Below, piece after piece: positions 1-57,959 of a DNA stretch of 64,000 bases. This stretch comes from Antennarius striatus. Taxonomy: Eukaryota > Chordata > Actinopteri > Lophiiformes > Antennariidae. The notes beneath the pieces were generated by a model. The model had not been told where the DNA came from and did not search any database. It worked only from the letters and a program-made list of their open reading frames with translations. The DNA lies in NCBI RefSeq assembly GCF_040054535.1, contig NC_090797.1, forward strand, positions 10,614,501 through 10,678,500, read 5' to 3'. Position numbers and translations under genes: made by a program. The first letter of the stretch is position 1; the number at the start of each line of letters is the position of its first letter.

Positions 1-150
1 GATGAATGCAAGAGAAAGAAATGATAATAAGACACAGATATAGTCTGAAAAAAGAAGGGGTGACAAAAATAAAACAAAATGGGAAACCTGTGGCACAAAT
101 AGACTGATAATAAGGGAAGAAAAGCTACAGTGAGGAAAGGACAAACTTAC

Positions 151-3100
151 TTTAGAAGTGACAAATGGACAGAGGATTCCCAAAGTGAATACACCAAGTA
201 AAGGACCTCCAGTAGCACCAAAGACGACAACACTTGCCTGTTTGAAACAACTCAAAATTACAAACTGGGGATCATGATTCCAAAATCTGGTACACTGTGC
301 TAAAAATATTTTTAAGTGATTCAGAGCATGTTGTATTAATATAAAAGTTTTTTTTCAAATTCCACAGAATACATATGGTTCCTATTTGTGTTTATTAAGG
401 AATTGTGATGCTAACATATCCACAGATCAACTATACCTGCATCATTGCTCCCATGGCTGAAGCCAATCCAGCCATGCCAATACATAAAATCCCATAAAAG
501 AAAGCTGGAAGCAAATCACATTAGAAACAGACATTTCATTTCTGCACAATTTGGCAACTGCAGACTGAGTTACAGCTTAAGTGACACTCTAGTGCTCATC
601 CACTCACTCAGTCCTTTGGACATCCAAAACAGATGCTTCTCTGACATGTTAGTGTATGGTTTGATCAGGTCCTCCAGTGTCACTGCAGCCAGTGCATTGA
701 TGCTGGTAGAAACTGTGCTGTGGTGAAATAATGGCAAAATCAGAACATGACTGATATGAACCATCATATTCATGCAAGTTTGTCTGGCTAAGGTTAATTT
801 GCAGTACTGCACATGTGCAATAATTTGATATGCACTATTCCATACAGTCTGCCTAAAGATTTACAGCAGTACAGTTGTCAATATGATACAACTTAAAATG
901 CAGAGTGTGTGCATTGGATCTACGAAGTGAAATAACTTTCATGAACATGAACCTTAGAGAGCCGCTACATACGGCTGCAAAAAATAGTCCAGGAAGGCCA
1001 GAGTAGTCACTCAAGATGTCCATCACCAAATATGGAATCAGCTGAGAAGAGTGTTGCGGATGTTAGCATTTATTACATGGAAGTGACACAATAATGTTAA
1101 TATAGTTATCTATTTATATGTAAAGATATACAATACAGCATGTTGGAGGAGTGCTAGTATAGTATAGTGGAAGAATACTAACTACTAACTAACAGCTATA
1201 ACCTTCCATTGTGTCTTATACCTGATCAAGAGCAGAAACTTTTCCAGATGTCCATGGGTCACAGTTCTTATAAATTGAGAAGAGGCACATTCCAGCAAAC
1301 ACTGTGGACACCGTGAAGATACACAGACCTACTATATAGATGCACATAGCTCTGGGGAAAAAAAGGAACAATGAAACTCAGTGCAAAAAAAAGGCAAAAT
1401 GCATGAACACTAACATTATTCCAGACTCATTCATTCAAAACATTGGGAAGATTTACAGATAATGTAACAGTCTGTATAAATGCTGATATATTTCACTATT
1501 TACCCAATTTGTGTTCATTTGCAAGATGCTGCTATCGTCTTTGTGCCTCTACTTAACATATAACATATGTTTTTAAGCATTTCTCTTGGTCCTTCTTGCC
1601 TTGTAACTTCCCAAAATGGCAGCCTATACATTGCCTGTTGTGCTCAGTCATCAACCTAACCTTGATGTTGTCACAATAGCAAGTGCCAGATTTCAGAACT
1701 CGGAGTTAACATGTTAATCACTGACTAATGCTAAACCATGTTAATGTTGAAAACTTGAGAATAGAGGGGCAAAACAGCTTCCTTTAGAGCTAAGCTCCAA
1801 GAATACATACACCTGATCCAAGAATGAAGTTGTTTAGAAATCTGAAATAAGATTTTGGAAGGAAACTTCAGGTGGGGTCTCAAGTGCTCTACAGGTTTGT
1901 GCTGCTAAATATAATATATATTACAATATAATATAATATAATAATATAATCTTCACAAAATTCTAACTTCTTTTGATGGACTTTGTATCCCTGGAACTGC
2001 AAAAGTTGGACAAGAGATATATTTTGGATTGTAAATCAGTTACCAAGTAAACAACTGCCACCCCATCAACCAAACAAAATGTATATACAGTGTTAACTTA
2101 TCTTTTGTTGTTTCCCAAATAGTTGCCCAGCCTTCAGGAACCACATCTCAAATCTCACTTAACACCAATATACAGTCTGTAAAAAGCTTCAAAGTGTGAC
2201 TCACGTTCGTGCATGAGTGATGCTCTTGCAGGAGACATATCTCTGCACCTGGGATTGGGTAGCCCCATTAACACCAGCCCAGTGTATTGCTGCCCCAATG
2301 ACCATGGTCCAAAAAGTGTGTCTTCTGAGAGGGTTTATGTCAAAACTGATGAAACACAGTCACATTTTTTATTCATTCATTATTTTATTCAAGCCAGTTT
2401 GTTCAAAAATACATCACATTAAACTTATTTGAGCAGAAAGATTATAATGGTAAAAAATGTACACACAGTACATCTGTACTAAATGGGCCTATTTCACAAA
2501 GCAGGTTTAATGGAAAACCTGGGTAAGGTAACCCTGAAATCAGGGCAAACCAGGGTTTTTGGTTTCATAAAGGGAGGTAACTTAACCCAGAGTTAGAGCA
2601 GTAACCCTGGCCTGTTTCATGAAGCGAGGTAAACTGAACCTCTGGATTTGTTACCGCAGTAAGACTCTCTGAAGCTAACCTGGTCGGGAGCAGGTTTTAT
2701 TCCACAAACCCAGGGTTTCTTCTGACTACACCCCCTTTCACAGCCGCTCATGCCGTTTCATTACCTGGTTCTGTCGGACGGTGAGTTTATAGTTTAATCC
2801 ACTATACATTACAGGAGAGAGTCTAGGTCACCTCAGGATGATTCCAGCTATCCAGAATGGCAGAGCAGTGACAGACACCATCTGCCAGAATCACTTCAGA
2901 GTCAGAATCACCACCATCACAGTGGGCAATAAAAACATACAATACGTGTTTCCTTTGGTCATCTTTATTTCTTACAAATACAAAGTTCATTTTTGTATCG
3001 TTACAATGGTTAACGTTCTAATATTTAACATGATTCACCTGTAACCATTCCCACCTCTAACTTGTGCTCCAATATTTCTTTGTCCAGATCTGCCCTATTC

Positions 3101-10175: not shown

Positions 10176-19211
<9,036 letters not shown>

Positions 19212-33900: not shown

Positions 33901-36900
33901 AGAGAAAATGTTTTGGTGATCACGGATGTGTTCACAAAGTTCACTCAAGCATTTCCCACCCGTGACCAGAAAGCAGAGACCACAGCAAAGGTGCTGTTGA
34001 AAGAATGGTTCATGAAGTACGGTGTACCAGAGAGATTACACTCAGATCAGGGCCGTAATTTCGAAAGTGAGGTTATTGCAGAGCTATGTAAATTGTATGG
34101 TGTGAGGAAAACACGGACAACCCCACATCATCCGACTGGAAATGCTCAGTGTGAACGCTTTAACCGTACACTACATGAGCTGCTACGTACACTTCCAAAT
34201 GACAAAAAAAGACGATGGCCTGACCACTTACCAGAACTGGTGTATGCTTACAATGTAACTCCACATGCCACAACAGGTTATTCCCCGTACTATTTGCTGT
34301 ATGGGATTGAACCACACCTTCCAGTTGATGCACTTCTTTCAAAAGAGCATCATGGGGACAAGAAGTTTGACTGGCTTGAAGTTCATCAGCAAAGACTAAA
34401 AGAGGCACATGCCAGGGCTAGGGAATATACAGAACAGAAAGCGACGGAACGTATTGCCCGCCAGAAAGATAAAGTGTACTGTCCAGCAGTCGACGTTGGC
34501 CAGCATGTTTATCTGCGACATTGGCCTGCAGGTCGCAACAAAATCCAAGATGCATGGAGTTCAACTGTATATCAGGTTGTGGACATACTAGGGACAACTT
34601 ACACTGTACAGCCTGTACAGGGGGGACCTTTGAAAAGGGTGAACAGAGTGGATATCAGACCATGTGTTAATCTGCCAGTCTTAACCCCCAGGAATGAGAC
34701 AGAGCCAGTATGGAAGCCTGATGATATCAAAGAAACAGAAACCCAGTCAGAGATGTCAGATGGAGATTCAGAGGAGGGAATTATTGTTGAAGATGTTTCC
34801 TTTGGTTTAAACTCTGATCCAAACACAGAGAGTTCACTTGTCAGGGACTGTGAGGGTGAAACAGATAATTCTGAGTTTGTGTTGAGAGAGGATGAGGGTC
34901 CAATTTTTTATCAGGGAGTAGCAGGGTCTGATGTACTTGACCCTAGGTCTCTCCAGACACCTGATGTACATGCGCCTCTCCCAGTTTGTCAGAGACAGAA
35001 ACCGAATTCAGAGGTGCAACCACCAATACCTGCCCCTCGGAGAAGTAAACGGGCAAATGCTGGAGTTCACCCAAACCCACATCATGAGCCCAGATCAGTT
35101 TTAGAGTCATCGTCTCTAAGTCCTGCAATGGTATCTCATATCCTGGCAAGTATGGGATCTGTATTCTTCAGAGAAGCGCTTAATGAAGTGAAAAATACCT
35201 TTGCTGTCAACGAGGACGTTAACAGTTAAGCAGGGGAGAATGTAACCAGGTGGTAAAACTATTTAAAGATACTCAGGGAATAAGAACCACTGTAATTAAT
35301 ATATTCTCAGTTGTAGTAGTCCTGCAGTAAGAATTAACTTTGGACAGCAGGGGGCAGAGTGACGGTCTCTGGGAGACGCGCGCTTTCGGGGAAAAATACC
35401 GGAAGTAAACAGTATCGTGCGGGTTTGTTTCACAGAGTTGAGTTACCGGTGCCGACCTTGAGACGATTTCTGGACGTTAACAGGTTGGTTAACGATAAGT
35501 TTGCACAAAATACACATCCGTTATTGTAAGGTTGTACGATGTTGTCATAGAACCATGTTTTGTGTACAGATGCCAAGTTAGGATTGCTGATGCTGGTGGA
35601 TCACATTAGCATGTGTGCTACCGGAGCTCAGTGTGTTTAAGCTAGGTAAGAGACTGAAGACAAGTTCGGGATTCATGCTCTGTATTTCTTTTGCTAACTA
35701 TGATATGGACATGATTTGTTTTGTTTATGGACTAAAATACTGTGTTGTAATTATACAGGGCATTGATATGAATGTTGTCTATTTTCTCTGTAGCCAGAGG
35801 TGCCACTGTCGTATTTTCATACATATTTTTCTACATATTTTGTTTTGGTAAATTGACAAATTTATTTAACACCTTAAATTTCATTTATAATTATTTCCAA
35901 TATTATATTTTGATTTGGGGAACACAATAAAGACCCACAAAAAATTGCATTTGAAGTCTGTGTGTTACTTATCCCGGCTTCACATATTTGAGAAAAAAGT
36001 TTATGATTGTAAAAATATTAAGTACTTAAAATATGTGAATGCTTCCTGTTTCCATACCACATCCACATCCATAACACATCTGGTCCATACATACACTTTC
36101 ATAACTTCCTTGAAGATATATATGATTTATCATTTGAGATACATACAAACTACTGTAGTTATTTCCTCTCTCTCGAACACTTGTCATACTTACTCCATAA
36201 AATTGAGTCTCCCTCCTTGTTGTGAATCTGAAATGACTTTGAAGAGTCCTCCTTGTAAGATCACTGACTTAACGATGACAGCCAGGTAACCTGAGAGCAT
36301 TATTCCAATCTAGAAGAAAAAATAAGACACATTCGGGTTGGAAAGTTTTTGCAATACAGTTTTGAATACAGAGTTATATTTTATTGTAACATGTTATTGA
36401 GGGCGAAAGGGTGGCGCAGTGTGTTGCGCTGTTGCCACCCAGACAGGTTGTTCCAGGTTTGTGTCCTGCTCTGTGCGGACTTTGCATGTTCTCCCCGTGT
36501 CTGCGTGGGTTCTCTTTAGGTTCTCCAGCTTCCTCCCATCTTCAAAAACATGCACTTCAGGTTAATTGGCCAAATTGACCGTAGGTTTCAGTGTGCGGGT
36601 GTATGTATGTCTGTGTCTCTGTGTGGCTCCGTGGTGCACTGGTGTCACGCCCGGGGTTTCGCCTCACGCCCACAGTCAGCTGGGATAGGCTCCAGCTCCC
36701 CTGACCCATGGCAGCGAATGAAGCGGTTGTGAAAATGAATGAAAGAATGAATGAATGTAACATGTTATTGCATTTAAAGTATTTTATGTGGTAGAGTACT
36801 ATATGAATGACATTTTGCAAAGATTTACAATAGCTAATTTCTCTGTCACTGAAGTTAAGAAGTTTGTGCTTTTTCTTTTGATTTGCTTTACTATTCAGGA

Positions 36901-37158
36901 ACAAATATTTACGTGTTCTATATTCAGTGACAGATATCTTTTTCTGTGTGTGTCTTCGGTATTAACAGAGAGACCCACCTGGAATACGTCAGTCCACACC
37001 ACTGCCTTCAGTCCACCCTGTAAGGATATAGATCATAATACAGATCATAATAATAAAATGAATCATAATCATTCATCTTTTACCACTTCTTCAGCTTTTG
37101 CAGATCATATATACATATATATATGTATATATACTGTATACACACACACACACACACA

Positions 37159-37203
<45 letters not shown>

Positions 37204-39728: not shown

Positions 39729-39777
<49 letters not shown>

Positions 39778-40091
39778 TGTGGGGACAATAAATAACTGTC
39801 AGAAAACAATCTCTCTCTTACTTTTAAAATTTGATGTAAAGGACAATATCAACCTTACCTCAGCTGGATTGGACAACACTGTGATGGCAGACATAAAGCT
39901 GGCAGTCAGAGATATGGAAACAGATAAGGCTGTCAGTGTTTGACCCCCTGTAAAAGTCTCTGGAGCTTTCTTGACCCCTTGTTTGCCTGTGCGAGGTAGA
40001 CCCCAATGGAGGTGGACACCACCAACATGAGAGCAAACACTTTATAGTCAGCTGCCACAAGGGAGCCAGCTACAAGAGAATCCCCTGACAT
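39570..40091 (-). pseudogene. Relict sixth slc5a8-like copy: exon 1 plus scraps
   Basis: Exon 1 is at 39859-40091, starts [20 protein letters not shown] with the normal ATG context and ends at a normal GAG/GTAAGG donor, but is 233 bp instead of 234: a 1-base gain (AACAAGGGG for AACAGGGG) and a 2-base loss (GACTTTTACAGG for GACTTCCTTACAGG) put the region between and after them out of frame, with a TGA. After 75 bases of intron 1 comes a TG/G tract (39725-39784) and then sequence matching intron 6 of copy 2 (39580-39720; GGCTACACTGCTGT) and the first 9 bases of exon 7. Exons 2-6 and 8-17 are gone. Its upstream flank resembles that of copy 2, so it is a deleted duplicate, not an alternative first exon. 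Confidence 0.85.
39725..39784. repeat. (TG)n(G)n tract at the relict deletion junction
   Basis: TG units pass into a run of 17 G. It lies exactly where intron 1 and intron 6 sequences of the relict copy meet. Confidence 0.9.
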
Positions 40092-40983: not shown

Positions 40984-43900
40984 TCACAGTCTGCTCTCGG
41001 TTGTATTCGACTTTGCTTCTCTACTCATGACCTGAAAGGGAAAAGCACAAAATAAGATCAGGGTCTGTCAGCTGTCATCAGGCTGATATTGTTTCTCTGC
41101 TGCAGCACTTACTCTGTCTTTGATCAACATGAACAGGTAATAAAAAGTTGTGTCTTCTTTCATGAATGTAACCCTTGAATCCACTCTGGACCTCTGACCC
41201 CCTAATACATACAATACAGCATCATTAAGGTTCATTTGTTGTATTTAAATATCACTAACAAAACTTGTTGTTTTACCTGTAAACAAGCTGACCACAAGTC
41301 CAACAATGATGGTTGTTACAGTTCCAATAGGACCAAAGTAGAGATAGGAAGGAGACTGCCAGATATCTGCTAGCTGATGGCTGGTGGTGGAAGAAGAAAA
41401 TAAGTACAGTGCGCCCTTGTTCCTCGCGGTTAATGTGTACCAGGAACCACATGCGATTAACAAATTAATTTACGGTAATTAAAACGTTTATGAACCCTCC
41501 CCATACTGATAATAAACCACCTTCTATCTGCATTACCTTTTTTGTAAGCTGCACCCTTATTATTTTGTCTTGGGTGCTGACATTTAGCCTCACCTATGGA
41601 AACAATCGCATCCATTGCAGTACAAATGTTTGGATTTTTCCTGGTTTTCGCTTGGCTTCTCCTGCGTCTTCATCTGTACTGTCCACAGTAACATCTGTCT
41701 CGTTTTCTTCATTAAATTCTGATTGTTTTTTAGTCAAGAAAGCACTCATTGTCACAACTCGTCGCTCTCTCACTGCAGTGTGTAAAATGAGCAGACGTCG
41801 TGTTCCCATTTGGTCAATTTTGATAAAGCTGAATCACGCAGGTGAGTCTCAAGAAAAACTTGCGTGAGACCTATGACATATGGGTGTCAAAGACGCAAGG
41901 ATGCATGCTAAGAAATATAAGAATACTTTGAAAAAAATACAATGAAAATATTGTATTATCCATAATGTTTGGATACAACTGTATATGCAATGGCACTCCA
42001 GCATACTGTTAAAAAATGCAAATATCTGTATGATTGGGATTTGTATCTATTCTAAATAACTGATTCATCTGTTTCCTTGAGCAATGTTATACATTTCTAG
42101 ACCATAAAACCGGAAGGATTGTTCAGGTCAATTGATCCCACATATGCCTGCTTGGTTGCTCTCTCTATACTATAAGTTAGTCATTCACTACAACTGGTTA
42201 CACACTTACTTGCCATCACCGTTTAGGGATGTGATGATGGAGATAGATTCTTTTGGAAAAGCAGTGGAGGTCCAGTTGAAACTGTCTGTAGCGTTGAAAT
42301 CACAGCCCTCAGTACTCAGTGGCAGAGGTCGGGCCATTGCAGGAGAGGGGGGATATATCAGACCTCCAATGCTGACACAGGAGGAGGCAGCCAACCCCAA
42401 CAAAAGACCTGATAAAGCCCCCTGTAGAAAAACTGTACATTAAATCTCATACATATCAAAACAAGTGATAAGGTCAACTGAAACCAACAATTGTATTGTG
42501 AACAAATACCTGGAATTTTTGACTAATAAATGACAACCCATGATTTACAGATTTCCAGTGTAATGCCTGTTAATACATTTCTGCATAATTTTATGGCAAA
42601 TCACTAATCTGAACAAACAACTGGGCTGATGGAGTAGAAAAAAAGTCACCCTGACATATATGTATTTTCAAATTTGAATTTAAGGTTATCAGACATAAAT
42701 ATTCCAGGTTGTAGAGGGGAAGACCTTAAGATAGTTAATGTGGGATAGTTGTTTTTTTTTTTTGGGGGGGGGGGGGGGTTCATGCAAAGTTTAGTAAAGT
42801 GACCAACTGAAAGGCACTGTTTCCTTAAATAAAATGAGATAAAAACAGTTCTAAGAGTTTCAACATTTTTAGAAATATTATTGACCCTCTATACAATGAA
42901 ACAAAATATAAGAAAGATCTTTAGTGCTTTTGGACATGTCAGTGTTAACAACATAGTTCACTTCAGCTCCAAAATCTACAGAACACAGCAGAAATCATTT
43001 TTCCATTTCACGCATTCCATAAATCACAGAAGATAAGGCAAAAGCTATCATGAAGAGAAGGGACTTACTTTGGAATTGGTGAATGGAAAAAGGATACCCA
43101 AAATGAACGTGCCCAGTAATGGACCTCCAGTAGCAGTGAAAACAGTGACACTTGCCTGAAACAAAAATGAGGATGATGATAACCTTGCTCTGTTGCAGTA
43201 AGACTTTTTAAGACTCTAAAATATATGGCTACTTTCTTAATTAAATAATTGTGATACAAACATATCACAGATCAACTGTACCTGTATCATTGTTCCCAAG
43301 ACTGAAGCTAGTCCAGCCAAAGCAATGCATAAAATCCCATAAAAGACGGCTGGAAATAAAATTCAGTAATGGGATTTTAATTCTGTACAGTTTTACAGCC
43401 GCAGACTGACATTCAGACACACTTATGATCATGAAACAAATTCATGCAGTCGATGCAAACATGGAGCATCTACTCACTCAGTCCTTTGGATAACCATAAC
43501 AGATGCTTCTCTGACATGTTAGTGTATGGTTTAATCAAGTCTTCCAGTGTAACTGCAGCCAGTGCATTGATGCTGGTAGAAACTGTACTGTGGTGAAAGG
43601 ACAATGACATTATGTCTTTGTAGATTCTCATTTATCCAGGTTATCCAAAGCTGTTAAATTCAATCCACTGGACTTTATTGTCTTCAAGAAACTTTAAAAT
43701 CCAGTGGATTGATTTACAGTTTTGGATAACAATGAAATTATTTAATAGTAATAATAAATTTGTCAATTTATTCTACTAAAGCACTGATAATGTAAAGTTA
43801 GGTGATATTGAATGCTGTTCAAATTGATTTTTTCATATTTTTTAAAAATATATACTGTACATTCATCAGCCACTTTATTAGATACACCTTGCTAGTATCG

Positions 43901-44479
43901 GGTTGGACCCCCTTTTGCCTTCAGAACCTCCTTAATCCTTCGTGGCATGGTTTCAAAAAGGTACTGGAAACATTCCTCAGGAAGTTTGGTCATATTGACA
44001 TAATAGCATCAATCAGCTGCTGCAGATTTGTCGGCTGCACATCCATTATGCAAATCTCCCGTTCTACCACATCCCAAAGGTGCTCTATTGGATTGAGCTC
44101 TGGTGACCGTGGAAGCCTTTTGCATACAGTAAACTCATTGTCATGTTCAAGAAACGAGTCCAAAAGATGATAAGAGTTTTATGGCATGGTGCCTTATCTT
44201 ACTGGAATTAATGATCAGAAGATGGGTACACTGTGGTCATAAAGGGATGGCCAGCAACATTGCTCAGGTAGGCTGAGGCATTGAAACAATGTTTGGTGCA
44301 ATAATTGGTACTAAGGGGCTCAAAGTGTGCAAAGAAAATATCCCCTGTACCATTCCACCACAACCAGCCTGAACAGTTGATACATGGCAGGATGGATCCA
44401 TGCTTTCATGTTGTTGACGCCATATTCTGACCCTACCATCTGAAGGTTACAGCAGACCAGACACACACACACACACGCA

Positions 44480-44511
<32 letters not shown>

Positions 44512-47500
44512 CAGTCTATTCATACAGTATGCAATGGGGAGAAAACACCTATGAGATAATTACTGCATTTAAATTCTTACCAGATGTTAACAGTTATAAC
44601 TACAGCAATCATCATGGTAGAGTTTAAAATTATGAGTGGGCACATTGAACCTACAGTACATAGTGGAATAACTCATGAACCTCAGAGCGCCGCTCCAGAC
44701 TGCTGCAACAAATAGTCCAGGAAGGCCAGAATGGTCAGTCAAGACGTACATCACCAAATACGGCATCAGCTGAGAAAAATAGATTACAGTGATTAATGTA
44801 GTGTTACAAAACGTAGTATTTAACTGACTCCCAAATACCACGTAGCGTAGTACTGTATTTGAGAGCCATATGTCAAGAAATTAAATCCTTGGCTATACTG
44901 TGCATGTATGTCTCTTTGTACCTGATCAAGAGACGAAACTTGTCCAGCTGTCCATGGATCACAGTTCTTATAAACTGAGAAGAGGCACATTCCTGCAAAC
45001 ACTGTGAACACCAGGAAAGTGCACATACCCACCATGTAGATGTACAGAGCTCTGGGGAAAAAGTAACAATGAACATTATTGCCAGTAAAGGCAAAATACA
45101 TTTAAAGGTCTCATTTTATACTCTTTTTAATCAATTTTACACAGCTGTCTGACATCCAACTACACTTAATTCAAAAGGTATTGCCTAAAACTGAAACGTG
45201 GTTCTGAATTTCAGCTGTCTAAAAGTTTCTGAAACCATCTCTACTGAGAATATTCTGTTTCTGTGCCTGCATCATTAAACGCAAATGAGCTCCGTTTGTC
45301 AATGCCTTCCTTGTAGTAGCCGGGACGTTGTCAGTAAAAATTATACACAACCACGGTCTCTTCTGTTCCTCTTAGGCTGGAACAGAACATAAGCACTTAT
45401 GTTCATTTGTAGAACCAACAACTGAGCAACTTATGAGTCTGGATGACGACATTGCGACACACTGCTACCTTACGATGGACACACCAAACTTCCCCCCGGG
45501 GATGGAGAGAAGGGGATGTTCTCCCACAGATAGGGCCTGGCTATGCAAATCACTCCTTTTGTTATGTCACAAAATGAGTGATTCTGATCAGCACGTTTGA
45601 GCACCATATCACAAGTTTTTGGGCTGTAGTTTTTAATTTAATTTTTTTTTATTTGACATCCCAAGATAAAGATACCCACCAATTCATCAACAGAATAAAA
45701 AACAAAAACAAAGCAAAAACACTTTATCGTAATCTAACTGATATTTCATACACAAGTTTCACAAACTGCAGTTTCATTCTTTAAACCATATACCAATAAA
45801 ATTAAGAAAGTTTGACTCACATTCTGGCATGAGTGATGGTCTTACAAGAGACATATCTCTGAACCTGGGGTTGGTGTATCCCACTGATAACAAGATTGTT
45901 AAGTGTTCCTCCAATTACCAAGGTCCAAAAAGTGTATTTCCTCATAGGGTTTATATCAAAGCTAGTGAAACACAATGAAAGATTCTGGTCCAAATTATTC
46001 ATACCAGTGTTTCAAGACAAACCATTGAAATACATGTACCTCAATACAAATAATTGAACAAAACAATTACAATCAAAGTAAGTACTTCAACAAAAAAAGA
46101 AGAAAAAACTCACTCCAAAAAGTTGAGTCTTCCTCCTTGCTGTGAATCTGAAATGACTTTGAAGAGTCCGCCTTGTAAGATCACAGACTTAATGATGACA
46201 GCCATGAAACCTGAAATCATTATTCCAATCTAGGAGATAAAATAATACATTTTATCTCCAACCCAAAAGTTGTTCCTTTCCAACCTTTGGGTGGGAAAGT
46301 AACAGCTGCATTTTCTTATTACTTGTTTTTTGGTTGTCTACACTGCTGTATTGGACACACCTATAGGCAATATATTGAACATGACACAGCTCAATTTTTT
46401 TCTCCATAGAGAGGCTTACCTGAAACACATCTGTCCACACCACCGCTTTCAATCCACCCTGTAATGATATAGACCACAAATAGATGTTGCACTTATGTCA
46501 ATCCTCCACAGTCTACCCAAACATACCTCTATAGATAATGGCAAAAATCAGCTATGCAGTATGATGTTTATTTTTGTTTACTAACCAATGTGCAGTACAG
46601 AGTGCACACAATCCCTGTTGTAATAATTCCACCCCACAAATCTATATCAGCAACTTGACAGAAAGAGGGAGAACAAAGGACAGAAGCCATCATTCTCAAA
46701 TAGCACAGTAAAGGTCATTAGTAATTTCCTGATGTTAGTAATAATTTGATGTGAACACCGTGGAATGAAAGCAACCTACTTTGGCTTAAAGCAAGGGCTG
46801 GACCATAGATGACAATTCCAGTGTAGAGCAACTGTGTGAAACAGAGAAAGGTAATACAGACATAGATTTCCTTCATGATTCAGATCTTGATGATAGCCTC
46901 ATTGGTAAATGTATTATTATGTATTGTGATGCTTCTCACTCACTGTCTGAAAAATAAAGATCACAGTTCCTAGGAGACGGGTGGCTCTGTTGAAACGCAT
47001 TTCCAAATACTTCATATTGACAAAAAAGGGACAGAAAGAGCATTCTTGTAAAACATTGATCCACTCAATATACAGTATATCTATCTGTTGACTGACTAAC
47101 CGTCAAAGATAGATGGAGATGGACAGACAGACAGATGAACAGCACATCTCCAAAGACTACGTACTGTATATACACTACAGTACTATGAAATACATACTCA
47201 ATTTATTTCTCACTTAACTGTTATGAGTTTGAGGACTGCTTGTTGTTTCCTGGCTCATTTTAAAGTCTATTCTCCCTAGTACACTTTCCCTCTTGTGTGA
47301 TGATCTAAATGTTTTCAACTGCATTTACTTCCAAAACTAGGATTTCTTGGAACAAATCTCAGAAAGGACTTTCACAGCTCTCACTGACTAGCATTGAAAA
47401 TGACAGACTCAGAAGTCTGTCACCATTGCCAATAGTTTTTTTATTTTGTTTTTTCTTATCCATCTGTTCCCGTAGTTTGTCTGTTTATTTGTATATCCAC

Positions 47501-48904
47501 ACATTCTATACTACCTGGTCCTCAAGCAATGTCTCGCCACTGTTACTGCTTCCCTATGCTGATTGTTATCAGCTACAGCTTGTTATCCCTGCCTACTATT
47601 GCATGTGGTTGCTGCCCTTCTGTGCGATTTTGTGATAGCCATTAACCTCTGTGTCTTTCATGACAGCCCTACTCTTATATTTCCTTGTTTTTTGGAGATG
47701 CTGATATATAGTTGTACTTGTAAGACATTCTTTCTGCACGTATCGGCTAGCTAATCATACACTCAGTCTTACCTCATAGGCGCTAGTGATGGCCATTCTG
47801 TAGAAGAATGGGAGAAAGACTTCAGATACCACCACCGTTGCTAGTATATAGCCGATGCCAAAATATAAACAGATGGCTCCATAAATGTACGTCTACAAAA
47901 CAGGAATGTTTCCAATTAGTCAATTATGACAGAAACTGAAAAAAAAGGAGACAGTAATTAATAATGAACCATCCATCCATCTGTCCATTTTCCTTTTTGG
48001 ATAGATTATGTTTGTCTAATTGTATATTATGTACAGTATTTTCCGCACTATAAGGCGCACCTAAAAGCCTTTAATTTTCTCAAAAACTGACAGTGCGCCT
48101 TATAATCCAGTGGGCCTTCTTTGTGAAAAAGATTTTGAAATAGGCCATTCATTGAAGGTGCGCCTTATAATCAGTTGCACCTTAAAATCCAGTGCGCCTT
48201 ATATATGAAAAAGGTTTAAAATATGCCATTCATTGAAGGTACGCCTTATAGTCCAGTGCGCTTTATAGTGTGGAGAATACTGCATATTATGTATTGTCTA
48301 ATTGTATATTATTTATATTATGTATAATTATGTTTGTCTAATTAATCCTGATGTTATGTTAACTAGATAAACATCATTAAATACATGTAACAGATTATGC
48401 GAGTTAGCTCCAAAACGAATTGTTGTTATTTTTATTGATTTATGAGCGAGCATGAATGCAAAGCCAAGCTCAAATATATATTTACTTCTATATTCCTTAT
48501 CTCTATAACAAAATAGGTTTCCAGTGTCACTGGTGTTTCATTCTAAATAACAGAAACAAAGAAAGGTCAGTAAGCACAGCAGCTAGATAAGAAATACCTG
48601 GTCAGAAAATTATTATTTAAAAGTGTTTTTTACCTTCAAATTTTGATGTAAAGAACAGTATCAATTTTACCTCAGCTGGAGTGGACAACACTGTGATTGA
48701 AGACATGAAGCTGGCAGTCAAAGATATGGAAACAGGAAAGGCTGTCAGTATTCGACCCCCTGTAAGGAAGTCTCTGGAACTTTCTTGACCCCTGTTGGCC
48801 CATACAAAGTAGACCCCGATGGAGGTAGACACCACCAGCATGAGAGCAAACACCACATAGTCAGCTGCCACAAGGGAGCCAGCTACAAGCGAATCCCCTG
48901 ACAT
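40984..48904 (-). CDS. slc5a8-like: SLC5A8-like sodium-coupled monocarboxylate transporter, copy 2 (short C-terminal tail)
   Basis: Seventeen coding exons: 48671-48904, 47773-47892, 46944-47009, 46780-46831, 46586-46653, 46420-46458, 46114-46229, 45821-45961, 44922-45051, 44681-44769, 43478-43587, 43282-43349, 43069-43155, 42210-42421, 41277-41380, 41113-41201, 40984-41031; 1773 bp, 590 residues, no internal stop. Family landmarks present: [54 protein letters not shown]. It departs from the other copies: exon 2 starts [20 protein letters not shown], exon 8 has [10 protein letters not shown] in place of NQSQVQRY, exon 12 [14 protein letters not shown]. The last exon has lost about 4 bases relative to copy 1 (just before TGTGATATTGAG), so the tail is short and ends TESRL, by chance or not a class I PDZ-type ending as in human SLC5A8 (TRL). 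Probably functional, but the most diverged of copies 2-5. Confidence 0.92.
41405..41600. repeat. Fragment of a TA-type MITE
   Basis: TTCCTCGCGGTTAATGTGTACCAGGAACC and CCCATACTGATAATAAACCACC match the element at 53993-54366 (GTTGATATGTTCCAGGACC, CCCATACTGATATTAAACCACC). The right end was not found. Located in intron 14 of copy 2. Confidence 0.5.
42752..42778. repeat. Homopolymer T then G tract
   Basis: About 12 T followed by about 15 G in intron 13 of copy 2. Confidence 0.9.
43639..43736. repeat. Imperfect long inverted repeat
   Basis: GTTATCCAAAGCTGTTAAAT and TCAATCCACTGGACTTTA on the left are repeated inverted on the right (AATCCAGTGGATTGATT, ACAGTTTTGGATAAC), arms of about 38 bases around a short centre. 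Palindromic MITE structure in intron 10 of copy 2; the words recur in the repeat fragment at 18130-18320. Confidence 0.7.
43850..44457 (-). mobile_element. Degenerate Tc1-like transposase remnant
   Basis: On the minus strand, pieces of the Tc1 transposase C-terminus are readable in shifting frames: [12 protein letters not shown]-like near 44250, APCHK near 44195, [18 protein letters not shown]-like near 44090, [20 protein letters not shown] and AKGGPTRY to the stop near 43900. Many stops and frameshifts; both inverted ends are not evident. Lies in intron 10 of copy 2. Confidence 0.75.
44460..44513. repeat. (AC)n(ACGC)n microsatellite
   Basis: AC units flanking a GCAC block next to the Tc1 remnant, same composition as the tract at 37140. 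Confidence 0.95.
48034..48282. repeat. MITE with CACTATAAGGCGCAC ends
   Basis: Ends CAGTATTTTCCGCACTATAA and, inverted, CAGTATTCTCCACACTATAA. The inside is built of diverged repeats of GTGCGCCTTATAATCCAGTG and GGCCATTCATTGAAGG. Intron 1 of copy 2. Superfamily not assigned. Confidence 0.65.
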
Positions 48905-50013
48905 TTTTCTTTGACTCTGACTCTAGTAATACTCTAGTTTAATTTATCTTTGCACTCAGACTTAACCCAGTAATAACTAACTAAAGATTAAAATGGAATT
49001 GACCTTCTGTCTTGACAATGAACTGCAGAACTCAAACAACCCTTTCATCATAAAAACATAAATTTTTTATGTGTTCACCTGTTTGAATGGAAAAATTTCA
49101 GCCGCCAGTTCTCTACATCCACCAATATGTTAGATGTTTTAATTAAAAGTTAAAGAATTTTTCACTAGTAACACTATTTGACATGATGGTAGGTTTAAAA
49201 TTCTATAATGAAAGTTTTACACGGAGGTGTAATTTAGCATTCATTGTTTACAGGGGAGATGAGAGCTCAAAGATCTTGATCTGACCTGTAACTTGCCAGG
49301 TAAATGATGGACTCGTACCTGTACAGTTACTGATTGGCTTGCAACATTGCAAAACCATACAAACATCCAACAGCAAGTTGGCAGGTGAATGCGATCATTT
49401 CACTTTCTGACTGTAAGGTTGCAGCCCCTGAGTATGCATTGTAAATTTAAATGTATTAACGAAAGCAGTGTTTGGTTACTGTGAGAAATGTTTGCATTAA
49501 AGTTCTCAGAGACATTGTGCCATTTGGGATTGGCCTGAGTAAATACAGTAAGGGGCATATCACTGACCCTAACAAGTGATTACCCTTCCTGGATTGCAGA
49601 GGGGCCAAGAAGTGAGGAGGTCCAGGAAACTAGAAAGTGAGCATTTGTGTGCAGTAAAATGTAAATCTGTTGTTGGGATGGGCTTGAAAAAAGTTTAAAA
49701 GAACAATTTGTTGTAACAACTGTTGGAGTATCACTCTCAAGTGCTCTGATCCCCATCCCGGTATGTATTAAAGAGACATGACTGATCCCACGTAACTTGT
49801 CCATAACTTGTAATTTTCTGAGAATTAGCAACTCTCATTTAGGAGGCAGATGTCCCTGACATTACTTTGTAGACAATGCAATATCTTTTTTTTTTAAAGT
49901 AGTTTATTTCTTAAAATAACATTTCTTGTAACAGGTCATGTTACGTAACATAACATGGTCATGTTATGTAACAAAAATTTCATAAATTGAGTTACAGACA
50001 TTAATTGCATATA
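48905..50013. other. Intergenic segment between copies 1 and 2
   Basis: Only 1.1 kb. The left half is the 5' flank of copy 2 (parts recur above the relict copy at 40091-40540); no TATA box is obvious. The right end is the 3' UTR of copy 1, with a poly(A) signal at 49903-49908 and a palindromic stretch at 49932-49971. No other gene seen. Confidence 0.65.
49903..49908 (-). terminator. Poly(A) signal of copy 1
   Basis: AATAAA on the minus strand about 110 bases after the copy 1 stop codon, the first such signal downstream, giving a short 3' UTR. Confidence 0.65.
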
Positions 50014-53000
50014 TCATGTTGGCTTGCTCCTTTTCCTTAAGTCCAACTCAATATCACAGAAAGCAGGATTTGAGTTACCGAACTTCTTCTCACGGTCTTT
50101 TGCCATGTCCAGCTTTCCTTTTTGTTTCATTGCCTGAAGTGGAAAGAGAAAAAAGCTGTCAGTAGCTGTCATTTATGTACATTTATTGGCATTGTTAAAC
50201 TGTTGAAGCACTCACTCTCTCTTTCAAAAGCATGGCAATGTGATAAAGACTTGTGTCCTCTTTCAGTAAAGTAAGCCTTGACTCCACCTTCTGCTTCATG
50301 CCTCCTAGAAAATAAATTGGGAACACATTAGCACCCTTAACATTAATTTCATACTAAATCTAATTTTCAAGCAATGAAATAGATAAACATAAAGTATGCA
50401 CATTATGCAACCGAGGTGTGGGGAAACATATAAAAGTGGTATACAGCCTCTATTCTTACTACAGAAAAAAGCCATAAGAATTCTTCACACTGTCCATTAT
50501 AGAGCGCACACAAATCAATCATTCATTACATACAAATTATTTAAGATATATGACCTCATACGCTATAGGACTGTTCAAATCATGTATAAGGCGGCCAACA
50601 ACTGTTTTCCACAAAATAAACTAGCACAACTCCAGAATAGTGAGTCCAACTACTAATTGAGAGAAAAGACAGCATTTTTACAGCAGAAAGCAAGAACAAC
50701 ATTTAAAACATCCTCAACTTCTTGTACTGGTATCAAACTTTGGAACAATTTGGACAAGGAAGTTAGGAATCTAGGAACCCTATCTGCCTTTAAAAAAAAA
50801 GCGTATAAAGACTTGACATTGCTTAATTAAAATACAAATGGAAATGTTGGTTAACTCTTTATATGGTTATTGTTTAATATGATCATAACATTGTTATGCA
50901 GAAACTGGAAGATCACTGGCTATATCAACTTCTGGTTTTGACCATGCATAACACTGACTACGCTTGCTGTCCCTTCAAAGAATGTCAATGTGACCGTGCT
51001 CTGGGTCACATCGGAACTACAAAAGGTCACTGAACAACTTATGTTCACAAAATGAACTGATGAAGACGTGTGAAGACACATACGTCTATTGGGACTGAAT
51101 GGACAGTTTTTCAACAGCAATGTGCCACAATGACTGTCACAAATTATTGTATTTATTGTATGATTTTGTTGAAAAATATTGTGATGTGAGAGGTGTTTCG
51201 TTGATTCTGAGGACGTGAACTACACAAGCCAAATGGCTTATACCCGTCGGCCCTTTTTTTTCGGATGTTGCTGATGTTGCAAATGAGAAGAAGCTGCTGA
51301 AGACTGTTGTAATGACATGTCCAAAAAAAAAAAACTACAAAAAAAAAAGAAAAAAAATGTCTGTAACTTACTTGTACACAAGCTGATTAATAGTCCAACA
51401 GTGACAACAATTATAGTTCCAACAGGACTCGAGTAAAGATACGACAGAGAGTACAAGTTACCTACTGGCACAGGTCTAGAGTGGACAGAGAGAATACAAT
51501 TCATTGTCAGGAATTAGAACACATTGACAAAACTGCTTCACTATACAGAAGCTCTGTATAATTCATCATACATGAGCAATGTTTTAGGTAAACAAGACAG
51601 CTTTTCTAAGGGTTGAGGAGTAACATATTTTTAAAAGTTACACACATTAGTTGCTAACTATATATTGCTTGTTTTTGAAAAAGAAAACCAATGCATTCAA
51701 CAAAAACTGTTTTTGCATTGTCAGTTTGTGTCCTCTGTGTCCTGAGTTATACACTTACATTCCATCAGTGGCTGTAGTGAAGGGGGTTGTAAATGTAGGC
51801 AGAATTGTAGAGGTTGAGTTGAGGCTGTCTGTTGTGGTGAAATTACAGCCCTCGGTGCTCAGAGGCAGAGGTCTGGTCAATTCGGGAGGGGGAGGATATA
51901 TATAGGCTCCAATACCCAACCACAGAGACACAGCCAACCCTGAGACAAGGCCTGACAAAGCTCCCTTCAAGACATATTAGGTACTGAAAATATATGTGAT
52001 AGTTTAAAGGGTAAACTATCATTTCAGCAAAAAAAATTCACATGCAGATTTATTTTGTTGGTTTGTCCAATGCTTAATTTTCTCTTGAGGAATCTCATTC
52101 AAACCAAAATCTAGGTTAAAATGAATAGAATAAGATTATCTTGCTTCATTGTCATCATACTATGGTACAACAAAATTGCAAGGTTAGATGGGAAGTTGAA
52201 CAGAACTTACTTTGGAGTTAGCAAATGGACAGAGAAACCCCAATGTGAACAACCCAAGTAAAGGGCCGCCAATGATCCCAAAAATGCTGTTGACTGCCTG
52301 TAGAAAATGATTACTTAAGGTACAGTTTCACCTATGTAATAAATCAAGAATCTCAGGTGAAGTCAACTGCTACAAAACTTTGAATATTCAACAATTGTGT
52401 GAGTTGAAAAATATTCTCAGACTTGGTTTAACTAAAGAGCACATGCACAAAAACTCCTTTTTACCTGCAGAATCCCTCCCATGAGTGAAACCAATCCAGC
52501 CATTCCAATAGCAATAAGACCAAATGCAAAACCTGCAAACATCGCAAACTTTAACATGTCTTTATATATATTGAACAGTATTGGTATTTAAAAAATAAAA
52601 AAACATTAGCCATTAAAAAACCTTAGCCGAAAAAAACCCAAACTGAAGGCAGTCTGCTTACTCAGTCCTTTGGTCATCCAGGACAGGTGTCTCTCTGACA
52701 TGTTAATGTATGGTTTGATCAGATCTTCCAGTGTCACTGTTGTCAGTGCATTGATGCTGGAAGACACTGTGCTGTGGTCAAAACATATACACACACATAA
52801 TCAGTCACAATTAATGAAGAATAAAGCTTGTAATTTCTCAGTGAAAGTTTCATCTATTGAGCAACATAACTTTATGTTAAATACAGTATTAACCTCAAAG
52901 ATCCACTATAAGCAGCAGCAACAAACAATCCAGGGAGGCCAGGATAGTCTGCCAAGATGTCCATTATTAAATGAGGCATCAACTAAAGAAGAGGGACACT

Positions 53001-56000
53001 GCATTGACACATCAGGAAGGTTGGTCTCACAATGTATACACCTTAATTCATGCATATATTTGTGAACCATACATAAGTACATACACAAAGAAAACAAAGG
53101 TGTTAAAAAGAGTTATTCAAAATATTTGAAATAAATTCATTCATCCATTCGTTAGTTCATTTACAATCATAAACATACAAAAAGAAAATAATCTTTTTAT
53201 TTTAAAATGTTGTGAGATCCAATTTCTTCATGCATACGGCTTCTTCTTCTTTTCCTTTCTGCTTTTCCCTTCAGGGGTCGCCACAGCGAATCAGTTGCCT
53301 CCATCTAACCCTGTCTTCTGCATCCTCTTCTCTCACACCAACTACCTTCATGTCCTCTTTCACTACATCCATAAACCTCTTAGGTCTTCCTCTAGGCCTC
53401 CTGCCTGGCAGTTCAAAACTCAGCATTCTTCTACCAATATATTCACTATCTCCCAATATATTCACTATCTCATGCATACAGCTACGTGTGTGTATTTTAA
53501 CACAATCACCATGAACCTCTTTCCCTCTGACCTGATCTGGAGCAGAGACCATTCCAATGGTCCAAGGATCACAGTCCTTATAGAATGAGTAGAGGCACAT
53601 TCCTGCAAACACTGAGAGAAGCATGATAGCTTCCACACCAATCAGGTTGATGTACAGAGCTCTGGAAACAGGGAGAATCACATGAACAGCCAAAAAACTG
53701 CTTGTCCATAAAAACGTGAAAATACTGAGAAACCGTTCACACAAACACCAATATACACCACATCAAATAATACTTTTTTTTAAATCAATTCCACACCTGA
53801 TCCAGTAGATTATTTTTCCTCCTGTCATATCATGGTAACTTTATTTTGCTAGGTTAATAATTGAAATCAGATTTGGTTTTAATTTAAATAAGCAGAACTG
53901 GTTGACCTTAGAAGAAGTCTGTGTTCCAATAAGTGACTTTATCTGTCTCTCTTCTTCTGAGCACAAAGCTTTTGACATTTGTAACTGGTATACAGTAATC
54001 CTTTGTTACTCGCTGTTGATATGTTCCAGGACCACCTGTTAAAATGAAATTCCACGATATAGCAATGAACTATTTATATATTTACATATGGTAATTTAAA
54101 CGTGTATGAACACTTCCCATACTGATATTAAACCACCTTATATCTGTATTACCTTTAATCATACTCTTAGAGACTGATTAAAGCGCTTTTGTATTAAAGA
54201 AAAGTGTTTCTTTAATACGTGTAAGTGTGCTGCGTTCCGTGAGTCTCAGAACGCAGTGCACGCACAGATGCTGTCAGCCAATAGCATATGCGTACTGTAT
54301 CATGTGACTACCTACTAAAAATCTGCGATGTAGTGAAACCATGCATTTTGAAGCGAGGGATTACTGTAAACCAAAGATGCCCAGATGACTTCCTGTCACA
54401 TGAACACTGCAGGACTCACAGTCTGGCTTGCGTAATGGTCTTGCAGGAGATGTATCTCTGCACCTGGGACTGGTTGATACCATAGATAGTTAACCACACA
54501 AATGTCCCACCAACAGCGATGGTCCAAAAAGTGTGTCTCCTCAGAGGATTTGTATCAAAGCTGGTTAAACAGGACAAAAAAGCCAGTTAAATTTTAAACA
54601 AATCTTTCAGGACCACAGAGAGAAACAGAAAGAATGAAATTAATAAAAAGCTTTGAGGGGCTTTATGGGGTCACAGTGGGTAGTGCTGTTGCCTCACAAG
54701 AAGTAAGTTCCATAGTTCAATTTCTCTGTGCTAAATTTTTAGATTATCCCCATGTCTTTGTGAGTTCTATCTGGGCTCTTCCACTTCCTCTGACCTCCAG
54801 AAACATGCGGCTTAGGTGAACTGATAACACACAACTCTTCACAGGTGTGAGTGTGATCGTGAGCAGTTCTTTGTCTTTCACATGGTCCCATGATGGCCTG
54901 CATCTTATCCAGGGTCCAACTGGCTGAGATAGACTCCAGTAGACCCGTCACCCATAAGGTGGTTAAGTGGCTGTAGACGAGACGATTGCGATCGTCTCAT
55001 CTACAAGAAAATGGATGGACGGATAAAGGTTTTGCACGTTTCACCACCTTAGACACAACAGTACGACCTAGTACTCATTGTACATCTTCCCGGAATCATA
55101 TTCTATAGTCCAAATATATGCAAAATGTTCTCCTGGGCTCACAAGACTTACTTTGCAAAAGTCTTTGTCCTGTTGATCTTGTGCTGTGTTGGGAAGTAAT
55201 AGTCTCCTCCCACCATTAGCCATAACCATACTCACAAATAATTGCATACTTACTCCCAAAAGTTGAGTCTTCCTCCTTCTTGTGAATCCAAAACAATGGG
55301 GAAAATTCCACCTCTCAAATTGACAGACATGATGATGACAGCTAGGAAGCCTGTAAACATAACACCAAGCTGGAGGGACATATTTTGACAATTTTAGAGA
55401 GCCTTCCTCATTTTTATTTAAATTTCACAGGTTAATTTAACAGAATATTGCATGTGAATAATAATATTCTAAGCATATATATATGATTGCAAAACATGGG
55501 CAAAAAAGGCAGAGAGGTACAGTCTCGACATACGTAGATACGCAGTCATCAGTCTCCTAGGAAAAGTCTATTCCAGGGTACTGGAGATTGAAGCAAGAGC
55601 TTGGTTTGCCATACCAGCAGTAAGTCAGACCTGTTTGAGGTGTGTGTTCGACTTTGACAGTGCTGCCCTTTATCACTGTTTCTGTTCATAATCTTTATTA
55701 ATCTAACTAATCCACCTCTTGATCAGACTAAACCATTTAAATCAAAAAAATTGGTACCAGTAGCTCCTACCTGAATAACATCTGTCCACACCACTGCCTT
55801 CAGACCACCCTGGAACAATGCAAAGGACACTCAGCCCCTGTGTCTAATGTACACCAGAAGTTAAAATAAAAGTTCTGGCGAATACAATAATTAATGTAAA
55901 AAAAACATATTAACAATAAAGTCCAGAAGCTTTAGTTACATACCATTGTGCAGTAAAATGTACAGACTACTCCTGTGGAAATAACTGCCCCCCACAGATT

Positions 56001-57959
56001 TATGCCAGTGACTGCAGAAGAGGGGGTAAGGGGGTACTTCAGACACACTCAACTGAGCTCACCTAGCAGTTTTAAGTACAGGTGGTCCTCAACATAAGAA
56101 CACAATTGGTACCAAGAGTTTGTTCAAGTTGAATTTTTTGTGAGTCGTTATTTATTAAATTTCAATCAATACTCACCATTTGAGGTAATTTAAATGTCAT
56201 AACTATTCAAAATACAAACGTGGACTTCCCAGAAACAATTGCAAAACATAAAAACAACACTTAATAAAATATAATATAGACACAGGTCGCTTCGAGTTGT
56301 CTTTTTCGATTTATATTGGTTTTAAATAAGAATAGGAACATATCATAACATATTTAAATACATACGTATAGTTCCAGCATCTTAAGCATCTTTAAGCGTC
56401 TCTCATGATTCATGCAATTGTTTTGAATTTAGATTAGTTTAATATATATAATGAATATAATTTAATCCTTGAGGAGAAGAAACACTTCAAGGAAATCTTG
56501 ACTGTTTTTTTATGCTCATCCAACAAATCAATCGTCGGATATGACTGCACTCATTTGTTTGTGTCTCCGAATGGTCATAAGTCGAATGTTTGTAAGTTGA
56601 GGATTATCTGTACTCTCATGCAGAATTGTTCAATGAATATAATTATTGTTGACTAAAAACAACAGACCTTGAGTCAAAGCAAGAGCTGGGGTATAAATGA
56701 CGAATCCAGTGTAGAGGATCTGTGATGGCCAGAGAGAAAAGAAGCAGTCAAAAATGATTTTTGGTTTTCCATCAGAGATCAAAAAAGTGTGATTATGTGC
56801 TTCTCACTCACTGTCTGACAGGAGAATAATACAATTCCCAGCAGACGTGTAGCTCTGTTGAAACGCAGCTCCAAATACTTTAGACATGAAGCAGGCAGGA
56901 GAAATCATGCAGTAGAAACGTCACGCATGAAAGTTCAAAATGCTTATCCAATGTATGAAATTAGACAAAAAACAGTTGCAGGACTTTCAATAGGAGATCA
57001 ACAGATGTTGTAATAAAATATATCACACATACATTCTTACATGGTATTCTTACAGTACCATACCACTGCTGTGCATTAACCTTTGGAACAGACACGTCAA
57101 TACATATCTTATCTTTGAGTTATTTAGACCATACTATATCTTACGTCAATGTGTTTTTTAATTTCCTATTTTAAAAGTATCTTTACACAATAAGGCCCTG
57201 GCAGTCAAAGCATTGTGTTATGTTCTGTAGTACTACAGAGGTTAATGAACATTAGAATAATTTCTTATGTGCCTTTTTTTAAAAAGAGAATTTCCTTCAT
57301 GAATGGAAAATAGTGTGTGAGTGCAGATCTGAATACTAACTCTCACTCACCTCATATGTGCTAGTGATGCCCAGTCTATAAAAGACTGGGAGAAAGATCT
57401 CAGATGTGATCACCATCGTCAATAATAAGGCGACAGCAAAATATATAATATTTGCACCATAAAAGTACACCTGCAGAATGAATAATTAATATGAACAAGA
57501 ATGTACAGTTGTTTATAAATTAATTCATTAGAAAATAATCTGTGGTTCAATTTATGATATCCTCTGAATGATTAATATCCCTGTATTGCATCTCAAAAGT
57601 TTATCATGGCAGTTACACTAGGAAAGTGGTTCCTCTGACCTAATAAAGAAGTTGTCTTGCATTTAATACATCACAAAAGTACTTTCTTTTTACACTTGCA
57701 CCTTTGGAATGTGATGAAGCCTTACCTCAGCTGGGTTGGACAGCATGGTGATGGCTGACATGAAGCTGGCCGTCAGCGACATGGAGACAGCCAGTGGCGG
57801 TAGCCTTCGACCCCCCATTAGGAAATCATCTGCACTTTGCCTGCCTCTATCTGCCCAGGCATAGTAGACCCCAACTGCTGCAGACACCAATAGCACAAGG
57901 GCAAACACCACATAGTCTGCCATGGCAAAAGCGGAAGAATTCAGGGAGTCTTTGAACAT
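50014..57959 (-). CDS. slc5a8: SLC5A8 sodium-coupled monocarboxylate transporter 1, copy 1 (complete, most human-like)
   Basis: Seventeen coding exons: 57726-57959, 57351-57470, 56812-56877, 56668-56719, 55944-56011, 55771-55809, 55254-55369, 54420-54560, 53532-53661, 52894-52982, 52662-52771, 52465-52532, 52211-52297, 51759-51964, 51372-51475, 50216-50304, 50014-50133; 1839 bp, 612 residues. Imports lactate, pyruvate, butyrate and nicotinate with Na+ in mammals, apically in gut and kidney. Landmarks closest to human SLC5A8: [75 protein letters not shown] (SSS in the sodium-2 helix, where copies 2-5 have STS), [19 protein letters not shown] and a tail with [10 protein letters not shown]. The tail ends SKPT, without T-R-L. 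Exon 14 is 9 bp shorter than in copy 4. A TATA box lies 82 bp upstream. Next to and divergent from utp20, as in human, so this is the best candidate for the ancestral orthologue. Confidence 0.95.
50396..50830 (+). mobile_element. Non-LTR retrotransposon reverse-transcriptase C-terminal remnant
   Basis: In frame: [53 protein letters not shown], then two stops and [19 protein letters not shown]. These are the C-terminal motifs of L2/Rex-like LINE polyproteins. Only the last ~140 codons remain; it sits antisense in intron 15 of copy 1. Confidence 0.7.
53241..53470 (-). mobile_element. 3' end of a non-LTR retrotransposon frame
   Basis: Same family as 20009-20340 in the other orientation: [54 protein letters not shown], then a GAAGGGAAAAGCAGAAAGGA tail. 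It lies in intron 9 of copy 1 in the host's sense, in the frame of exon 9, with no stop in between. Confidence 0.75.
53993..54366. repeat. TA-flanked MITE, complete
   Basis: 374 bp with ends CAGTAATCCTTTGTTACTCGC and, inverted, CAGTAATCCCTCGCTTCAAAA, flanked by TA (53991-53992, 54367-54368), as for Tc1/mariner-type MITEs. Intron 8 of copy 1. Confidence 0.75.
54660..54960 (+). repeat. Diverged copy of the common teleost repeat
   Basis: GGTCACAGTGGGTAGTGCTGTTGCCTC, CCCCATGTCTTTGTGAGTTC, CCTCTGACCTCCAGAAACATG follow the word order of the element at 36403. Intron 7 of copy 1. Confidence 0.6.
56077..56612. repeat. TA-flanked MITE with GGTCCTCAAC ends, complete
   Basis: Ends TACAGGTGGTCCTCAACATAAG and, inverted, TACAGATAATCCTCAACTTAC; TA at both edges. 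AT-rich inside with no coding capacity. Intron 4 of copy 1; relative at 24178-24785. Confidence 0.75.

What the first reader, a model, noticed from the sequence alone, without database searches (positions are those of the whole stretch)
1..57959. Five-gene tandem expansion of slc5a8 beside utp20
Mammals have a single SLC5A8 next to UTP20. Here at least five head-to-tail copies (four complete and open, one cut by the window edge) plus one relict occupy 58 kb. All share the 17-exon pattern (234/120/66/52/68/39/116/141/130/89/110/68/87/206-215/104/89 bp). Open frames over hundreds of codons in each copy argue for selection, so the fish may have a diversified set of Na+-coupled monocarboxylate carriers.
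Basis: partly seen in the sequence, partly recalled or inferred. Interest (0 to 1): 0.8.

Follow-up and report, generated by a model that had tools for sequence, protein, structure and literature searches.

The report
Frogfish slc5a8 tandem gene array
The striated frogfish carries a row of six neighbouring genes for a sodium-driven transporter of small organic acids: one is the ordinary vertebrate gene, and five descend from a second, faster-evolving fish version that was copied further in this lineage, a real but fairly ordinary kind of gene-family growth.

Summary
On the minus strand lie slc5a8-type genes A-D (complete) and E (cut by the window edge), plus one broken exon 1, beside utp20. 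Fetching 30 kb to the left completed E and added a sixth intact gene, F. All six have 17 exons, GT-AG introns (96 of 96) and open frames. The fish is Antennarius striatus.

It is not one expansion. A belongs to canonical slc5a8. B-F belong to a second percomorph clade (100/100) that shares a contig length with the first in 9 of 9 testable species. Only B-F are the frogfish-lineage amplification (99/97).

B-F reject omega = 1 (p 7e-14; omega 0.51). B, D, E and F are each constrained; C is not (0.93) and is relaxed against the rest (p 0.006), though still open. B has a shortened tail. Sodium-site residues are kept in all six; two TM6 pocket residues are repeatedly replaced in the second clade, but the pocket as a whole is not. 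Substrates are untested.

The parts
50014..57959 (-). Copy A, canonical slc5a8 (clade I), 17 exons, 612 aa
   Evidence: Exons 57959-57726, 57470-57351, 56877-56812, 56719-56668, 56011-55944, 55809-55771, 55369-55254, 54560-54420, 53661-53532, 52982-52894, 52771-52662, 52532-52465, 52297-52211, 51964-51759, 51475-51372, 50304-50216, 50133-50014; clade I; SSF domain
40984..48904 (-). Copy B, clade II, 17 exons, 590 aa; last exon ends early (48 bp)
   Evidence: identical to P0006; clade II
21998..39271 (-). Copy C, clade II, 17 exons, 614 aa; intron 7 (between 36194 and 28428) holds an LTR element
   Evidence: identical to P0004
10176..19211 (-). Copy D, clade II, 17 exons, 613 aa
   Evidence: identical to P0001
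1..8049 (-). Copy E, clade II, exons 1-13 in the window (8049-151); exons 14-17 lie outside, complete and open; copy F follows further left
39856..40091 (-). Relict: lone exon-1 copy with a frame break; about 450 bp of its 5' side resembles that of copy B
   Evidence: tblastn E 2e-14, frame changes within the exon; 5' side 65.7% over 464 columns to B
28513..35982 (+). Young LTR retrotransposon in intron 7 of copy C (bystander, not part of the array)
   Evidence: LTRs identical over 743 bp; RVT_1, RNase H and integrase domains in 30781-35226
60671..61063 (+). utp20 exons near its N-terminal end, divergent from the array
   Evidence: phmmer to 7mq8_SP, E 4e-39

Best explanation
A duplication of slc5a8 early in percomorph evolution, most likely in tandem, made two genes: a slowly evolving canonical slc5a8 (clade I; copy A here) and a faster second paralog (clade II). 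In the frogfish lineage, after its split from handfishes, unequal exchange amplified the clade II gene to five copies (B-F) and left a stray exon 1 between B and C. Each copy keeps the exon plan, the SSF fold and the sodium-site residues. All six most likely work as Na+-driven cotransporters of small anions, with clade II perhaps differing from SMCT1 in substrate range or coupling through TM6 changes; copy C is under weaker constraint. Shown: array, exon structure, clades, overall constraint. Inferred: unequal exchange, transport activity, any change of substrate.
For: Gene models and splice sites. Careful tree of 62 rows (bootstrap/SH-aLRT): clade II 100/100, with Thalassophryne 79/90, clade I 77/83, both together 98/93 apart from Ophidiiformes, antennarioid clade II 100/100, B-F 99/97. 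Both clades show equal contig length in 9 of 9 species of the tree with both clades and both lengths listed. B-F omega 0.51, omega = 1 rejected p 7e-14; terminal branches B p 4e-7, E 0.001, F 0.008, D 0.03. 0 frameshifts between the C and D CDS against about 29 expected from intron indels. SSF domain in A-E.
Against: Clade I support is modest (77/83; 86/86 before F was added). The order within B-F is unsure and differs between the protein tree and the codon fit. C: omega 0.93, p 0.78 against 1. B's last exon ends early. Pocket positions are not enriched for change, clade II against the rest (6 of 29 versus 52 of 206, p 0.82) or among B-F (10 of 40 versus 131 of 431, p 0.59). No support for positive selection (M1a versus M2a p 0.43, copies B-E). 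No expression or transport data. Same contig is inferred from equal length only.
Confidence: 0.8

Rival explanations
1. One recent expansion of slc5a8 in this fish, with A merely the oldest copy.
For: Shared exon plan and head-to-tail order.
Against: A shares 59-60% of residues with B-F, which share 77-86% with each other; A groups with handfish P0121 and ordinary percomorph slc5a8, B-F with the '-like' proteins of many families.
Confidence: 0.05
2. Part of the array is decaying: copy C, and perhaps B, are relaxed and on the way to pseudogenes, as the lone exon 1 already is.
For: C omega 0.93, above the background (p 0.006, one of five copies tested); B's tail cut short; broken exon 1; a stop-free C would arise in 6.7% of neutral runs.
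Against: No frameshift between C and D CDS while their introns hold 44 indels not divisible by three in 2791 aligned bases; all splice sites intact; B as a whole is constrained (p 4e-7).
Confidence: 0.25
3. Assembly artefact: haplotypic or false duplication.
For: None found.
Against: Copies differ by 14% or more in protein and 17-19% in alignable introns; the contig length equals one of a hifiasm assembly with purged duplicates.
Confidence: 0.02

Closest known systems
SLC5A8 / SMCT1 (human, PDB 7sl9)
   Same: SSF fold; A-E 57-65% identical over 487-488 residues; sodium-site residues; beside utp20
   Different: One gene each in human, mouse, rat and cow (table in passages of PMC3319611); B-F replace human Tyr257, and B, C, E and F also Asn260
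Tandem SMCT1 pairs in Xenopus tropicalis and Tetraodon (PMC3319611, passages)
   Same: Tandem duplication of the same gene
   Different: Two copies, not six; whether Tetraodon's second copy is clade II was not tested
slc5a8l and slc5a12 (PMC9309457, passages)
   Same: NIS-clade carriers of fish
   Different: slc5a8l lies at another locus (tshba-slc5a8l-sycp1); slc5a12 is reported absent from percomorphs; neither was in the trees here
SLC5A5 / NIS (rat, 7uuy)
   Same: Same fold; 48-51% identity to A-E
   Different: Iodide carrier; used here as outgroup and for residue numbers

Membership tests
SLC5 / sodium:solute symporter family | SSF domain PF00474 above its gathering score | tested here: met
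   A-E score 113-136 bits against a cut-off of 22.8; F not scanned; TIGR00813 met for A and D
SLC5A8 (SMCT1) | Closest solved relative is SMCT1 rather than NIS or SMVT | tested here: met
   Blocks of copy B: SMCT1 607 bits, NIS 469, SMVT 369
SLC5A8 (SMCT1) | Groups with vertebrate slc5a8 in a tree that also holds slc5a8l and slc5a12 | not tested
   Trees hold human SLC5A8, rat NIS and fish hits of the two searches only
SLC5A8 (SMCT1) | Locus beside utp20 | tested here: met
   utp20 exons at 60.7-61.1 kb; the mammalian neighbourhood is recalled
SLC5A8 (SMCT1) | Sodium-site residues kept (NIS 66, 69, 191, 194, 263, 353, 354) | tested here: met
   Same in A-F as in SMCT1 and NIS; all seven are in the modelled ion pocket of PMC7034854 (passage), their role as sodium ligands is recalled; position 66 is N or T in 5 of 25 other clade II rows
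SLC5A8 (SMCT1) | Na+-coupled monocarboxylate transport | not testable with these tools
   Needs uptake assays

The most novel reading that the evidence does not exclude
Clade II is an unnamed sister gene of slc5a8 across percomorphs that keeps the sodium sites in most members but has repeatedly re-made the TM6 face of its pocket (NIS positions 259 and 262: 8 parsimony changes each in clade II, none in 33 clade I and basal rows). The frogfish amplified it to five copies that also differ at position 94 (Y, Q, I, Q, H), which with 93, 255 and 259 has been tied to coupling in NIS. The array would then be a set of carriers with different substrates or Na+ stoichiometry.
Probability: 0.22. Interest if true: 0.6.

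Novelty: new member of a known kind. Interest (0 to 1): 0.4.

Why it matters
The published surveys seen here describe a single slc5a8 in stickleback (PMC9309457, passages) and tandem SMCT1 pairs only in Xenopus and Tetraodon (PMC3319611, passages). A second slc5a8 lineage across percomorphs, amplified in frogfish, would affect the naming of the 'SMCT1-like' genes and inferences about lactate, short-chain fatty acid or iodide handling in fish, the more so as percomorphs are reported to lack slc5a12. The natural TM6 and position-94 variants on an intact sodium site are a ready panel for asking what sets substrate and stoichiometry in NIS-clade carriers.

Tried and rejected
Pocket-wide re-specification: tested with the residue list of PMC7034854 and not supported, for clade II against the rest (p 0.82) or among the array copies (p 0.72 and 0.59). 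The stress on positions 259 and 262 is post hoc: they tie with 202 and 458 for second of 180 columns that are invariant outside clade II; 161 changes more. Positive selection by site models on B-E: not supported (p 0.43). In the five-gene free-ratio fit the short inner branch to C and D had omega 1.46; not tested further. Gene conversion: a D-E run (CDS 1150-1222, p 0.0034 on all variable sites, 0.011 on third positions) and a B-D run (CDS 17-70, p 0.0036, but 0.16 on third positions) among six pairs; suggestive only. Frameshift marks in A and B and in A and C came from a query that did not fit the exon 14/15 junction and vanished when that was read directly. The third protein search, structure prediction and fold search were not used.

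Searches listed no paper on the frogfish array or on a second percomorph slc5a8 clade; subscription journals and preprints are not held.
Full report
WHAT IS THERE. The window has no unknown bases. Self-comparison showed a repeated series of short blocks on the minus strand. Final models: A 57959-50014, B 48904-40984, C 39271-21998, D 19211-10176, each 17 exons; E 8049-151, 13 exons and then the window edge. All 76 introns are GT-AG; no internal stop in 5 of 5 frames. Between B and C lies one lone exon-1 copy whose frame breaks (40091-39856); other stray hits of the five proteins had E 0.1-0.4. utp20 exons lie at about 60.7-61.1 kb on the plus strand.

LEFT OF THE WINDOW. The window is C22:10614501-10678500 of its own genome, 548,383,777 bases in 42 contigs. 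In the 30 kb to the left, exons 14-17 of E are present at -185 to -2425 and a sixth copy, F, lies at -5220 to -13415; both are complete, 615 and 614 aa, 17 exons, GT-AG throughout, no internal stop. No further match was found to -30000. The array is therefore six genes over about 71 kb; its 96 introns are all GT-AG. The family search listed no row on C22, so it says nothing on copies elsewhere.

WHICH FISH, AND IS THE ARRAY REAL. D, C and B are identical to Antennarius striatus proteins and E's first 440 residues to a fourth. The contig length listed for these, 16,841,418, stands as contig N70 in Table 1 of the HiFi/Hi-C genome paper (PMC11192929, passages); the held C22 is 16,837,500 long, a small difference not explained. 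Clade II copies differ from each other by 14-23% and from A by 40-41% in protein, so haplotype duplication is excluded. No A. striatus protein equal to A was among the 120 rows listed for A, and none fitting F among the 120 for D; why is unknown. The annotated E isoform X2 (P0027) departs after exon 14, but the genome holds an intact exon 15 there.

FAMILY TREE. From the 148 proteins listed by two searches I chose 67 by hand and added A, human SMCT1 and rat NIS (70 rows, quick tree); leaving out 9 redundant rows gave a careful tree of 61; replacing the annotated E by the genomic one and adding F gave 62. Supports are bootstrap/SH-aLRT. Clade I (77/83; 86/86) holds canonical slc5a8 of many fish including stickleback and fugu, and copy A with handfish P0121. 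Clade II (100/100; 79/90 with the long-branched toadfish Thalassophryne) holds the '-like' proteins of mackerels, flatfish, archerfish, glassfish, wrasses, basses, sea breams, a snapper, Scatophagus, handfish, and B-F. The two join at 98/93, apart from Ophidiiformes. Handfish clade II rows and B-F form 100/100, B-F alone 99/97 (95/82 without F). The order inside B-F is unsure: the protein tree has C with D (95/78) and E with F (91/30); the codon fit preferred B, then F, then E, then C with D, among five orders tried. In nine of nine species of the 70-row tree with both clades and both contig lengths listed the lengths are equal (Toxotes, Scomber scombrus, S. japonicus, Symphorus, Parambassis, Halichoeres, Xyrichtys, Acanthopagrus, Brachionichthys); five more had both clades but lacked a length (Scatophagus, Dicentrarchus, Semicossyphus, Sparus, Paralichthys), and a second, near-identical S. 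scombrus row (P0012) is listed with another contig. Clade II rows are longer from the common node (median 0.53 of 27 rows against 0.18 of 24; A 0.41).

SELECTION. Pairwise NG86 omega is 0.31-0.33 for A against the others (dS 0.83-0.93, near saturation) and 0.28-0.55 among B-F. Terminal branches against 1: B 0.35 (p 4e-7), E 0.54 (0.001), F 0.45 (0.008), D 0.59 (0.03), C 0.93 (0.78); C alone differs from the rest (p 0.006 of five tests). Before F was known the values were B 0.39, E 0.48, D 0.64 (p 0.066) and C 0.84. Controls: neutral simulations with approximate branch lengths left a stop-free frame in 0.000, 0.067, 0.016 and 0.007 of 2000 runs for B, C, D and the 440 codons of E. Alignable introns of C and D hold 44 indels not divisible by three in 2791 bases, which would give about 29 frameshifts in 1845 bases of CDS; none is there. 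B's last exon, by contrast, ends at 48 bp instead of 114-120, its downstream bases no longer in the family's frame by my reading of the alignment. So C was kept open for most of its history but is now the least constrained.

RESIDUES. Positions 66, 69, 191, 194, 263, 353 and 354 (NIS numbers) are the same in A-F as in SMCT1 and NIS; all seven are in the modelled ion pocket of PMC7034854 (passage). TM6 positions 259 and 262 are invariant in 33 of 33 clade I and basal rows (A included; Thalassophryne counted as basal) but changed 8 times each in clade II; in B-F they read S, N, S, N, N and H, T, N, T, T. Copy B also has Asn for Trp255. Position 94 reads Y, Q, I, Q, H; the introduction of the same paper ties 93 and 94, with 255 and 259, to stoichiometry and ion coordination in NIS. 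Against a broad reading: the pocket list as a whole is not changed more than other columns, and 161, 202 and 458, outside the list, change as often or more.

MECHANISM. Each protein is most likely a Na+-driven symporter of small anions. Shown: fold family of A-E, sodium-site residues, constraint. Inferred: monocarboxylates as substrates of A; some shift of substrate or coupling in B-F. Upstream similarity is short: about 100-140 bp at 69-80% among C, D and E, none to A at E 1e-5, so expression may have diverged too.

WHAT IS KNOWN. PMC9309457 (abstract and passages) reports a single slc5a8 in stickleback and no slc5a12 in percomorphs. PMC3319611 (passages) reports tandem SMCT1 pairs in X. tropicalis and Tetraodon. 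The searches listed nothing on the frogfish array or on clade II. I file it as a new member of a known kind: a lineage-specific tandem array of a known carrier family.

Noticed in passing
28513-35982: Young LTR retrotransposon in intron 7 of copy C, antisense to the gene; LTRs identical over 743 bp. By eye it is flanked by CATA on both sides if the LTR is taken as TG...CA (my script's own scan printed no target-site repeat); a gag-like frame (zinc-knuckle motif, by eye) and a pol frame are open.
   Followed up: partly
50014-57959 (copy A) and -5220 to -13415 (copy F): Neither end gene of the array had a matching A. striatus protein among the 120 rows listed, although both gene models are complete. 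Copy A has the longest branch in clade I of the 61-row tree.
   Followed up: no
P0027 (copy E, annotated isoform X2): Its C-terminus departs after exon 14, as if exon 15 were skipped and exon 16 read in another frame; the genome holds an intact exon 15.
   Followed up: partly
P0002 (Scortum barcoo, 983 aa) and P0011 (Lates japonicus, 638 aa): Predicted proteins that look like two neighbouring slc5a8 genes fused into one model, a likely annotation error that itself points to tandem neighbours.
   Followed up: no
12743-13075, 24832-25161, 369-729: The exon 11-12 region with its intron is 91-92% alike between C and D and between C and E, while the next block is 78-82%, a hint of gene conversion.
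   Followed up: partly
15356-15498 and 11210-11307: A perfect GT array of 71 copies and a near-perfect TA array of 49 copies, both in introns of copy D.
   Followed up: no
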